The notes under the pieces are model-generated. The model saw nothing but the letters and a program-made list of their open reading frames with translations. It was not told where the DNA came from and did not search any database. From assembly GCA_025345505.1 (NCBI GenBank), contig JANVCC010000048.1, positions 1,720,037-1,784,036 on the forward strand: a stretch of DNA of 64,000 nucleotides. Direction: 5' to 3'. The translations under genes were made by a program, and so were the position numbers. This DNA comes from Todiramphus chloris collaris. Taxonomy: Eukaryota > Chordata > Aves > Coraciiformes > Alcedinidae. Below, in pieces: positions 15,301 through 24,300 of this stretch (the stretch's first letter is position 1; each line of letters opens with the position of its first letter).

Positions 15301-18300
15301 AAAACTAAATTCAGAGACCTTGCTTTAGATTTTTGTGTTTCATAATGAGTAGGAGAGGATGTGAAAATAGGATCATGATTCAAAACGAGGACACAGGGTT
15401 CATCGTGGTCTGGAGGAAGGAAGAACAAATAGAGTGGAAAGGGATTGGTGATCTTGAGAGAAATGAAGTTAACTTGATGCTGGTTTAGTTTTCTTTGCAA
15501 AGTTAATTTTTCACCCTGTCTGTGCCAAGTGACTTGTTCCAACAGCTTTACATGAAGCAGTACCTGGTGTTTGCAGAGTGGCCAAGAGGAGTAAGCAGAT
15601 AATTACTTAACAGAATTTCCTTTTTTGCTTTCATTTATAGATAAAGGAAATCAGCTGGGGAGATGTTGGAGGCTGGACTGGACAAGGAGGATCAATCCTG
15701 GGGACAAAACGGTAATGGCAATATTTTGCCAGTTAACATGATGAATTCTAGTGTTTTTTATAACCAGTGTGGGATTCCATGCTCCTCTCCTTCCGTAGAA
15801 TGTCTGCAGTCCTCAACTGCTGGTTTTATTTTTTTTTAAGTCATTATATTCCAACTTTAGTACCTTTATAGTACTGTGCCAGCTCTGAAGAGAGAGTGAA
15901 ATGAGACTTGGGACCTCAACTTAAAAATTTCCTGGCGTCCTTACGCTTAAAAAGACTCCAAACCAGTAGTTTTTTCAGAGTTGACATGATTCCATACTGG
16001 TTGTCAGGAAGAATTATTTGTATGGATAAATACTGCATTGCCTGCTCAGTTTACTGTTTCAACTTAGTAATGGGTTCTTATCCTGCAGAGTCTGTAAAGT
16101 GGTTTTATTTTTCTTTTGGTTTAATAATTTTTAGTACTCTTCCTGCAAAATACTTGGAGAAGATCGCTGACCAGATGCGCACTAACAACATTAACGCCCT
16201 TATGGTTATTGGTGGATTTGAGGTACACTGAAATCATTATGTCTTAAGTAGAGTAGAAATCCTAACAAAATAAATGGACCATTTTCATTTTTACTTAATC
16301 TTCAGGTAAAGTTCACTTGGCTGTAGCTGTATTTGAGAACACAGTGTTTAGAAGTATTCTCAATCCCCAATTCTGTTAAAAGCTGACATTCAAGACAGTG
16401 GCTAGTAACTGCCAAACAGGGTGTGCTGAATGGGTAAAGAAAGCAGGATAGCACTATTTTATATTGAAAAACCAGCTATTAATTACTCCCGTAGTGCAAG
16501 TCGGAGTCTGTATTGTACTGATGCTTAGAAGATACTTCCACAAGTTCTTGACCTTCGGTAGCAATCGCGCCGTGGTCCCATATTGAGGCCACTCTTTCTC
16601 CCATAGTGCATTTCAAAAGCTGTACTTGAACTAGAGAAATATTATTGATTTAATTATATTCCCCCCCTTTATTTCATGTTAATTTCTTTTTCCCAAATTA
16701 ATAAATTTTTGCAGTCTTATTTCGGGGAGGTATTTTTCCAACTCTTCCCATAGAAAGACATGCCTGTTGCTCCTTTATTAAGGAATGAATCATCTTTTTT
16801 TTTTTCCAACCCGTTAGGCGTAGCCCTAGTTCAGGACTAGCAAGGTTTTGAAAGAGGAGTAGCAGTACCTGAAGATTGGGGAACTGATTTACAGTGTGTT
16901 CGTGTTGCACGCAGCATTTTGTTACAGCTATAATTACATATTCCCTTGGGAATGAGTGTTCTCTTTCTGGTTCCTTTTCAAATGTATACCTGGTTTTAAT
17001 GCTTTCTTTTGTGTGTGTCTGTCTTAGATTTTAGTGGGTCCTTGATGCTCTGACATGCTTACGTGTGCCATGGTAGAAGTGGCTCCCCCTCTGGCCCTTT
17101 CCATTTTATCACTCCCAACGTTGTGCATATTTTATTCATCCTAATTTTTACACCCAATGCCTGTGCCCGACAGGCGTACCTTGGACTTCTGGAATTGTCA
17201 GCTGCCCGCGAGAAATATGATGAATTCTGTGTTCCCATGGTTATGGTTCCTGCAACTGTATCCAACAATGTACCGGGTTCAGATTTCAGCATTGGTGCAG
17301 ATACTGCTCTGAACACTATCACTGATGTAAGTCTGCTCTGGTGTGTGCGCTTCCTAACACAGCAGTTCTGGTGAAAGCTGACTACATTGGCTGGAACTGG
17401 GTATTTTTATAAACCAGAACTCTGGAAATGCCACCTGGAAAAAGATAGGGTTACTTGATATAGCTCCATTCTCCCACTTAAAAAGAGAAGGTTTAGGATC
17501 CCAAGTGCTGCCGTTAGGTTTCCTCTGAAACTACAGTGACCTGTGAAGTTGTAAACTACAAAATAACAAGGCACATATATCTACTGTGTATGGAGGAAAG
17601 AAACCTACAGATAAGACTTGATGGTCATTTGATGCACCCCAGAAGAAAAAGAAAATACCTAGTTCTGTAACATCTTCATTCCTCTAGCAGAGAATGTGAG
17701 ATCCATATGTAGGAATCACGTATGTTCTACTAATAACAGATTGAACAAAAATATTTGAGACCTACTATGAAGCATTAAAAAACCTAATCTAGGAATACCA
17801 TAGAAATTAAAAATGGATTGCTTAATGCTGAACAGAGTTGCACAGAAAGCATTGTCAAATACCATGCAGGCATGCACATTTACAGTTCCCCTGAGTCACT
17901 TAGGCACACCCTGGCTAAGAAGGGCAGTTCCTTCTCTGTGTTCTGACATAACTTTGTCTGGAACAATAGGCATACATATTGCAAATACAGTTGCAAGGTG
18001 TCTGTAAGTTTTCTTTTTTAAAACACAGCAAAGACCTGGGGAAAAAAAAAAAAGTCTTCAAAATTGAATTTACATTTTCACTTAGAAAGAAGAAACAGAA
18101 TTGTTTCATAATCTAGTAGATTATAATGAATTGCTGGATGATATTACACGTTCCATTGATGAGTTTTGTCTCCAGCCATGCTAGAGCCAGAATGTAAGAT
18201 TTTTTACTGATTGCTTAGAGTGAGCTACATTTTAAAAAGTGAAAAATAATTAGCATTAGTGCTCATGTAAAGCAGGGAAAGAATTTCAAGTTGCTTCTGG

Positions 18301-21300: not shown

Positions 21301-24300
21301 TTTTCTTAACATATCATAAATGCAGACTAACCAGTTGTGTTAGTTATTGCTTTAGATCTCCCTTCAACTTGTTTTCCCAAAAGTTTAGCATAGAACTTCC
21401 TAAAGAAGGGCATTTTTTGCAGCTCTCCAGGAAGGAAGCCGTGCAGCGGCTGTGGCACCAACCACCGCGACTCAGCGGACCTCTTTGTTGGTAGAAACAA
21501 AAAGGAAAGCAGCCTGACTGAGCTGAGTTGGGCTGGGCAACTACTGACACCTTCTCAGTGAAGTCTTGTCCGTTCAGGAAAAAAAAGATCCAGTTTTTGC
21601 TCTTCTGGCCATACTGCTTCTCAGAGCTATGGGTGTTGGAGTGCAGGCTTTCAGGCCACGTTGCAGACTCAAGCTGGAACTGCATCCTAGCACTGAGCTT
21701 AACTGAACGTTGTGCATATGAAATACATGAGGAGAGAGTGACTTTAAATACTCAGTTTGCATTTGCACACCAACCACCATGTGTCCTGTCCTCTCACTGA
21801 GCAGGATCTGCTTTTTTTTTAGGACAAAAACTGAAGAGAGCAGAACTCTTAGAGCTGCTTCTTTTCCCCAGCATTTTCTGCCGAGTTACTGCTTAAATCA
21901 ATCACTGTATAGATATTTGGTAATGATATTGATAATCCTGATCTGCAACAGTTTTCAGTTTCTCAAATCAGAGAAGCAAAGATGAGACTTGTGAACATCA
22001 GTCCTTGCTGGGAGAAAGAGATGAAGGGGAATGTAATGTACTGTGTAATCAGGCTTGCTTACAGAGTCATTGCATGCAGAGGCAGTTTGGAGCACGGCCA
22101 CACGTGGTAAGAGGTGCTGATTAGTTTAGATTGGAAAGGATTGGAATACTCCAACTAGAAAATTTGTTTACTGACTTCAACCAGCTGCAAAATCTTCACC
22201 TTTATTTTGCCATCTATTAGGAACACCTAATCCTTTTCACGTAGTGATTTGTTTTGTAGTGTTTGGAGTTTTTCCAAGGACCTCCAGCTGTTTTTCAAAG
22301 AGTCCTTGAACTGTACGTGCAGACTTTATCCACTCCTCTGTGTGCACGTGTGCCTGGATTGTGCTGGGCCTCTGTCCACTCTGTGCAGAGAGGCACGTGT
22401 GTGATGCTGATAGGATCTTGGGATGCATAAGCAAACCCTTTTTTCCTTTTCCTTGGTGGCTATAGATGTGTGTCTTGACTTCATAGGATAACATACTTTT
22501 ATTTTTTTTACAAGCAGCTTTCTTTAAGCGTTTCCTTCAAGGCGTAGGTGTTCTACCAGTTAACTTTCTAAGCTGCTTAACACGTGTCCACCTTCATTCT
22601 TGAAGCAGTTCCTCGGGGAGCGATTGCCAGTCTGCCTCTGCGCTGTCTGTCTGCACAACCGCTTCAGCCCTCTCTGCCGCGCACGCTTCACGCGCGCTCT
22701 GCGCTAACTTGCACTAACCTGCCTTTCCTCCAAGAGCATTGTGCCAATGCAACCCCAGTGCACTGTTGTGGTATGTACAGGTTCTCACCCCCCCCCAAAA
22801 CCATCCCACCGCTTGGGTTTACTTGGGCCAACGGACAGCCAAATTTACCATCACATGCAAGGAGTCGTTAGCAGAGCAATGCAAAGGCGAGGACTGCAGC
22901 ACTCATACTTGTACCACTGCTCCAGGCCTATGAAAGCTGTCTGCAGCTACACGAGGCGCGTTCCCGCTTCGAGGAGTTTTGCGTCCCTGTCTGTGTGCTG
23001 CCCGCTACCATTAGCAACAATGTGCCGGGCACAGACTTTAGCATTGGTGCCGACACTGCCCTGAATGCTATCGTGGAGGTAAGACTGCCTGTCTTTTAAA
23101 AGTTAAGGATACCTAAAGACCTGGAAATGTCTAGTTTGCTAAAATAATTCAGTTACTGTATTTGGGGTTTTTATTATTTACAGTTAAGAAGTTTTCCAAG
23201 ACTGATTAAGGACTAACCTTATCAAAACAAATGATGGCATATGTTTAAATCTGAGGGACTCTTGTTACCCAGGACTGCTGAATTAGTGCTTAGGGCATGT
23301 GCTTTTACTGAGAAAAAAAAAGAATTGGCTTGCTTTGATTTTGGTTTTAACTTATGTAGCTCCTCAACATTACTTAGGGGAAAGATGAAAGCTCATGCTT
23401 TATAAAGAAATGCCATATTTACTGCACAGGCTAGCTAGTGCACACACTTTACTAGCACAGGCTAATGACTGAGCTCAGCACAATAGAGCATTTTAAGGAC
23501 ATGGTAAACACTAAACATGAATAACCCCATAGGCTTTAGGCTTAGCATATATTAAGTGCATAGTATAAGCAGTTAAGTCTGTCACTGATGCTGACTGAAC
23601 ACTGTGAGGCCCACGCTTGCTGTGAACAAGTATTGCACTTCAGTCAGGACAGTCAGTTTTCTAGTCTGAGTCTGCCACAGCTTTTTCCCTTGGGTACAAC
23701 TGCTGTATGAACTCTTTAAGTTCTTTACATCCAGTCTGCTGGAGCCCCAGTGAAGGGCACTTAGGTGAGGGCTAATGCAAGTAAGTGAGTAAAGCCTCTG
23801 AACAGCTCAGGGGTTTATCAAAGCCTTTATTATCAATCCATATATCTAATTATGAAGTAATTGGCCCAGAAAGTCAGTATAGAGATCCAGGGGGTTGAGA
23901 ATTGCAGTTTTGTTCTCCTGCTCTGATAGAGTGATAATTATTTATTCATATAGAGTGAACAAGTTCCAGCAGGTCACTGAAAAGAGCTGTGTCAGCCTAC
24001 ACTGTGGCCTGCTCTTTGGGAAATGCAGTGCAGCATCCCTGGGCTGAAGGTGACCTAAGCTGCAGCGTGGATAAGTTGCAGCAATATTTTCATGGGCAGG
24101 GCATGGGTACTTTTCACCATTCCATGAGCTTCTTCCCCCTTATCAGCTTCTATAAATGTCAGGCAAAGTCTGCTGGTTGTGACTGATATCCTCTAGGAGT
24201 GATGCACCTGTAGAGGTGAAAACAGGAAGACACAGGGAGGGGAAGAATGATGGCATATATTGCTGCTTCCTTGAATGTCTCTGGCCTTAGGGTTCATGTT

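What the first reader, a model, noticed from the sequence alone, without database searches (positions are those of the whole stretch)
17174..23078. Two same-size, same-phase versions of the PFKP effector-site exon
Exon 14a (17174-17326) and exon 14b (22926-23078) are both exactly 153 nt, open, phase 0-0 and bounded by AG/GT. They encode 51-residue versions of the same segment, with 32 identical residues. Both keep the ligand loop (TVSNN or TISNN) and GADTALN but differ through the first 25 residues. The order 16222-[14a or 14b]-26593 is in frame either way. This predicts two PFKP isoforms, one mammal-like and one PFKL-like at the fructose 2,6-bisphosphate half-site, and so a splice switch for allosteric control of glycolysis. 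The divergence with conserved motifs points to old, selected copies. I cannot say whether this is already described.
Basis: partly seen in the sequence, partly recalled or inferred. Interest (0 to 1): 0.85.

Follow-up and report, generated by a model that had tools for sequence, protein, structure and literature searches.

The report
Alternative exon pair in PFKP gene
This bird gene for the glycolytic enzyme phosphofructokinase-P carries two interchangeable versions of one exon, a long-conserved vertebrate feature already described in humans, with hints that the pair may be older than the enzyme's three-gene family.

Summary
In detail: 17174-17326 (a) and 22926-23078 (b) are both 153 nt, phase 0-0, AG/GT-bounded, and encode homologous 51-residue segments with 32 of 51 identities. 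Either joins 16222 to 26593 in frame. Protein models carry b in birds, crocodilians, turtles, lizards and snakes, amphibians, ray-finned fish and mammals. Both copies keep the frame and 5,599 nt separate them, so neither frameshift nor crowding enforces the choice. No splicing data could be seen here. New here: a resembles PFKM and b resembles PFKL more than simulation expects if the exon was copied inside PFKP, but AU tree tests do not reject that origin. The bold reading is a pair older than the vertebrate PFK genes, later split among them.

The parts
3272..32057 (+). PFKP gene, visible part (about residue 62 to the stop codon)
   Evidence: Exons located with a recalled PFKP protein and splice sites; 727 of 731 residues of the two-copy reading match a kittiwake PFKP model
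16135..16222 (+). Shared upstream exon, donor GAG|GTACAC
   Evidence: lowest score of the 20 donors on an approximate, recalled matrix
17174..17326 (+). Exon a, 153 nt, 51 residues, [10 protein letters not shown] type
17327..22925 (+). Intron between the two copies, 5,599 nt
22926..23078 (+). Exon b, 153 nt, 51 residues, [10 protein letters not shown] type
26593..26757 (+). Shared downstream exon (TCDRIKQSA...)

Best explanation
This is the bird orthologue of the PFKP mutually exclusive homologous exon pair described in humans. One of two 51-residue segments is spliced into the C-terminal, regulatory half of the enzyme. SHOWN: homology, equal length and phase, open frames, splice sites, conservation of both copies across bony vertebrates, and residues that separate a from b. 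IN PRINT for human: mutually exclusive use and Val539Ile. INFERRED: each mRNA normally carries one copy; both isoforms still bind the sugar-bisphosphate effector because the loop T-[V/I]-S-N-N is kept, while changes in the preceding helix and strand (14 of 19) and Val539Ile alter affinity or coupling at that site. The choice must rest on regulated splicing, since reading frame and distance cannot enforce it.
For: Same length, phase and place, 32 of 51 identical. Gull b is 50 of 51 identical to the window. Of 238 retrieved proteins, 130 hold two copies exactly 51 residues apart, 97 distinct pairs; residue 29 is Val in 97 of 97 a and Ile in 97 of 97 b, residue 23 is Cys in 97 of 97 b (the matching pattern admitted only V or I at 29). 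Mean pairwise identity 0.837 for a, 0.810 for b. Human pair in print. In an AlphaFold2 model of the two-copy gull protein residues 503-563 (nearly all of a and the first part of b) fall below pLDDT 50 while the rest of b fills the fold, as expected if one copy per chain is the natural state.
Against: No transcript data from any bird were available. Many public models, isoform-numbered ones among them, contain both copies in tandem; that list favours two-copy models by score, so it says nothing on frequency, but joint inclusion is not excluded. No regulator motif stood out. PFKL and flatworm rows with one copy may bias the fold model. A kinetic effect is untested; the ligand-loop change is only Val to Ile.
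Confidence: 0.75

Rival explanations
1. Both exons are normally included together, giving a PFKP 51 residues longer, or b is an optional cassette added to a.
For: Both exons keep the frame, so joint inclusion is open. The 120 listed hits are dominated by two-copy models; several bear isoform numbers (X3, X5, 3-T3).
Against: Two-copy proteins rank first because both copies score, so the list is biased. The fold model leaves one copy's worth of residues at pLDDT below 50. Human PFKP is described as mutually exclusive.
Confidence: 0.12
2. Exon b is a dead or unused relic.
For: No transcript evidence was seen here; mammalian b has drifted (0.61-0.67 identity to the window) and one bat model has lost an Asn of the loop (TISNS).
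Against: Open frame, intact splice sites and fixed residues over bony vertebrates.
Confidence: 0.03
3. On origin: the exon was copied inside PFKP, or in the common ancestor of PFKL and PFKP, and the a-PFKM and b-PFKL resemblances are convergence or exon exchange between genes.
For: AU tests reject no origin: a+b as sisters p 0.129 and 0.147; a, b and PFKL together without PFKM p 0.363 and 0.377. Only 51 sites and one PFKM sequence. In the free tree a+PFKM has SH-aLRT 95.6 but b+PFKL only 29.8. One of 18 differing columns (15) shows the opposite sharing (a=PFKL, b=PFKM). V/I and S/T are easy changes.
Against: Simulated evolution with a and b as sisters reached the observed 6 columns of type a=PFKM, b=PFKL in 0 of 2000 runs (mean 0.5); with (a,PFKM),(b,PFKL) 40 percent of runs did (mean 5.1). 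With a copy made in the PFKL/PFKP ancestor, 8.4 or 3.0 percent reached 6, and two or more derived columns shared by a and PFKM arose in 0.95 or 1.3 percent. The statistic was chosen after seeing the pattern.
Confidence: 0.45

Closest known systems
Human PFKP mutually exclusive exon event (PMC7954323; PMC9741552)
   Same: Same gene, same segment, same residue 539 Val/Ile at the fructose-bisphosphate site.
   Different: This is the bird copy; the human b letters themselves were not seen, only other mammals' (squirrel, bat, marsupial).
PKM exons 9/10 (PKM1/PKM2)
   Same: A glycolytic enzyme with a mutually exclusive exon choice that changes fructose-bisphosphate allostery (PMC7954323 section 11).
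   Different: Unrelated gene and segment. Each PFKP exon is a multiple of three, so frame does not police the choice; that the PKM exons are not is recalled.
Exon pairs split among gene duplicates: FYN family, CACNA1C/D/F/S (PMC9741552 section 12)
   Same: One gene keeps both exons while paralogues keep one each.
   Different: PFK genes are not among that section's examples, and the case here rests on 51 residues and one PFKM sequence.

Membership tests
Tandem-duplicated, mutually exclusive homologous exons | Neighbouring exons, homologous, same phase and similar length, consensus splice sites | tested here: met
   153 nt each, phase 0-0, AG/GT, 32 of 51 identical, no exon between them found
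Tandem-duplicated, mutually exclusive homologous exons | Only one of the two in a given transcript | not testable with these tools
   No transcript data; in print for human PFKP
Human PFKP exon event (Val539Ile) | Same gene and segment, Val in one exon and Ile in the other at residue 539 | tested here: met
   PFKP by sequence; exon residue 29 maps to 539 (the 28-residue offset of chain 4xyj rests on a recalled length of 784)
Exon choice enforced by frameshift decay or by steric crowding | Exon length not a multiple of three, or very short intron between the copies | tested here: not met
   153 nt each; intron 5,599 nt
Exon pair split among gene duplicates | a groups with PFKM and b with PFKL, to the exclusion of a+b | tested here: inconclusive
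   Simulation favours it; AU does not reject rivals; b+PFKL support 29.8

The most novel reading that the evidence does not exclude
The a/b exon pair arose in a single PFK gene before the early vertebrate genome duplications. PFKM then kept only the a-type effector segment, PFKL only the b-type, and PFKP kept both under splicing control, so PFKP can switch between a muscle-like and a liver-like effector-site scaffold.
Probability: 0.5. Interest if true: 0.55.

Novelty: already known. Interest (0 to 1): 0.35.

Why it matters
PFK is a main control point of glycolysis. A conserved splice choice in its effector site parallels PKM1/PKM2; among the papers I opened only two genome-wide surveys of such exons mention it. 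If the same two exons were later fixed in PFKM and PFKL, isozyme differences at this site began as splice isoforms, which chimeric enzymes and basal chordate genomes could test directly.

Tried and rejected
Third copy in the window: none found. Frame break at the exon starting 31043: first noted, then withdrawn, because bird proteins read TDF-V-HRIP, which puts the donor at 31148. Regulator motifs: eight motifs in five intron stretches, nothing beyond nominal TGTGTG counts (3 against 0.6 expected, P 0.03, and 2 against 0.4, P 0.07, before correction for 40 tests; first-order Markov resamples). AG-free zone before exon a is 92 nt, longest of seven acceptors checked: a hint of a distant branch point, not pursued. 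Codon divergence between a and b: silent sites saturated (pS 0.83), pN 0.27, so no Ka/Ks could be drawn. Paragonimus protein with three copies (P0123): repeated with their flanks, most likely an assembly or model artefact. The flatworm search, meant to reach other invertebrates, gave 21 hits: 18 named flatworm proteins (query included) and 3 unnamed. Flank tree: P, L and M nearly equidistant (0.67-0.70); it weakly joined M with L (SH-aLRT 67.6), unlike the published liver/platelet and muscle/brain pairing (PMC1508162 passages). An earlier count said no column shares in reverse; that is wrong, column 15 does, and with the weak b+PFKL support I lowered the novel reading from 0.55 to 0.5. Paper searches listed no title on a bird pair or on a PFKM/PFKL exon split; they cover open-licence PMC papers only, lists were cut at 8-20 rows, and I opened nine papers, by outline, passages or single sections, none whole. 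Without use for the question: PMC12613645, PMC12487847, PMC12289307 (passages), PMC12203962 (passages: no 'splic' in its text), PMC4465641 (no PFK in main text).

Full report
Observation. The two exons are as described: 17174-17326 and 22926-23078, each 153 nt, phase 0-0, acceptor AG and donor GT. They share 32 of 51 residues (E 5e-26 for the single comparison). I assembled the visible gene on the + strand, exons from 3272 to 32057. It encodes PFKP from about residue 62; 727 of 731 residues of the two-copy reading match a PFKP model named for the kittiwake, so the window is from a bird. All four splice outcomes (a, b, both, neither) are open over the exons joined, which stop at 31146. The following exon joins in frame if the donor lies at 31148, as bird proteins imply.

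Identity of the segment. It carries the effector loop T-[V/I]-S-N-N of the C-terminal half. Exon residue 29 corresponds to human residue 539 (offset partly recalled). Exon a is canonical PFKP (human PFKP 102.5 bits). Exon b scores highest against human PFKL (82.4 bits), then human PFKP (77.2 bits).

Already in print. PMC7954323 (passages and section 11) gives PFKP as a mutually exclusive exon case that likely alters allostery; its S17 legend models residue 539, Val to Ile, in PDB 4XZ2 (S4 Text not seen). PMC9741552 (abstract, passages, section 12) says that PFKP isoforms differ at a residue involved in allosteric fructose-1,6-bisphosphate binding. PMC5740500 (passages) does not name PFK in its main text.

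Conservation. A search with the b segment gave 2438 proteins at E 0.001 or better, of which the best 120 were listed. By their names these include birds, alligator, turtles, lizards, a snake, frogs, a newt, sturgeons, bowfin, many teleosts and a marsupial; squirrel and bat came. Two-copy models rank first because both copies score, so the list says nothing on isoform frequency. Of 238 proteins retrieved in all, 130 have two copies exactly 51 residues apart, 97 distinct pairs. The pattern used required [TS][VI]SNN[VI], so a bat b copy with TISNS fell outside. Within that set residue 29 is Val in 97 of 97 a and Ile in 97 of 97 b, and residue 23 is Cys in 97 of 97 b. Mean pairwise identity is 0.837 for a and 0.810 for b. 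Six columns share no residue between 27 representative a and 27 b. Against the window b is 0.98 identical in gull, 0.94 and 0.80 in two passerine models, 0.94 in alligator and one turtle, 0.75 in newt, 0.67 in squirrel and 0.61 in a marsupial. Mammalian b has drifted most among those compared.

Mechanism. Frame and distance do not force exclusion: 153 nt each, introns of 951, 5,599 and 3,514 nt. Exon a's acceptor has the fewest thymines of 21 acceptors (3 of 16 positions), though not the lowest pyrimidine fraction, and the shared upstream donor scores lowest of 20 donors on an approximate recalled matrix. This fits regulated choice but proves none. The motif scan found no clear regulator. AlphaFold2 on the gull two-copy protein (43-row alignment, mean pLDDT 76.4, pTM 0.80) leaves 503-563 below 50, that is nearly all of a and the first 11 residues of b, while the rest of b has strand and helix in place. 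One copy per chain therefore looks natural; the single-copy rows in the alignment may bias which copy is placed. How the exchange changes the enzyme is inference: the loop is kept, the helix and strand before it change.

Origin. Of 18 consensus columns that differ between a and b, 5 have a equal to PFKM and b equal to PFKL, 1 (column 15) has the reverse, 3 share only a with PFKM and 4 only b with PFKL (27 a, 27 b, 10 L, 1 M, 10 outgroup). In the 31-row set the counts are 6 and 1. The outgroup proteins (18 named flatworm and 3 unnamed) read TISNNVPG, so b and PFKL keep the older Ile, and Val539 and Ser546 look derived in a and PFKM. The free tree joins a with PFKM (SH-aLRT 95.6); b with PFKL gets only 29.8, with PFKL nested inside b. 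AU tests reject no alternative (p 0.129, 0.147, 0.363, 0.377). Simulation with a and b as sisters reached the observed concordance in 0 of 2000 runs, and with a copy made in the PFKL/PFKP ancestor in 8.4 or 3.0 percent; two or more derived columns shared by a and PFKM arose there in 0.95 or 1.3 percent. The statistic was picked after seeing the data, the model is LG+G4, and only one PFKM sequence was held. A published PFK tree has a 1R/2R pattern with liver/platelet and muscle/brain pairs (PMC1508162, passages); on it, sharing of a with PFKM and of b with PFKL would put the exon copy before 1R. My own flank data neither confirm nor exclude that gene tree. I rate the pre-vertebrate reading at 0.5.

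Verdict. A real, conserved exon pair, known in humans and ordinary as a kind. The interest lies in a little-studied allosteric switch and in the possible splitting of the pair among the PFK genes.

Noticed in passing
window 8621-8740 and 9187-9306: A 120-nt tandem duplicate (91 percent, spacing 566) copies most of the 45-nt exon 9178-9222 with its donor. It lacks the original acceptor; read from the AG just before it, its length would break the frame. It looks like a failed exon duplication in the same gene.
   Followed up: partly
P0133 (Rhinolophus sinicus PFKP model): Exon b reads TISNS instead of TISNN at the ligand loop; with the drift of b in squirrel and marsupial this may mean relaxed constraint on b in mammals.
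   Followed up: partly
P0123 (Paragonimus kellicotti protein model): Three copies of the exon together with flanking residues; likely an assembly or gene-model artefact, not a convergent exon duplication.
   Followed up: partly
window 58700-59035, minus strand: Open frame with [25 protein letters not shown], which I recognise from memory as PITRM1-like (M16 peptidase), convergent with PFKP; not searched.
   Followed up: no
window 17080-17173: AG-free zone of 92 nt before exon a, longest of seven acceptors checked; possible distant branch point.
   Followed up: no
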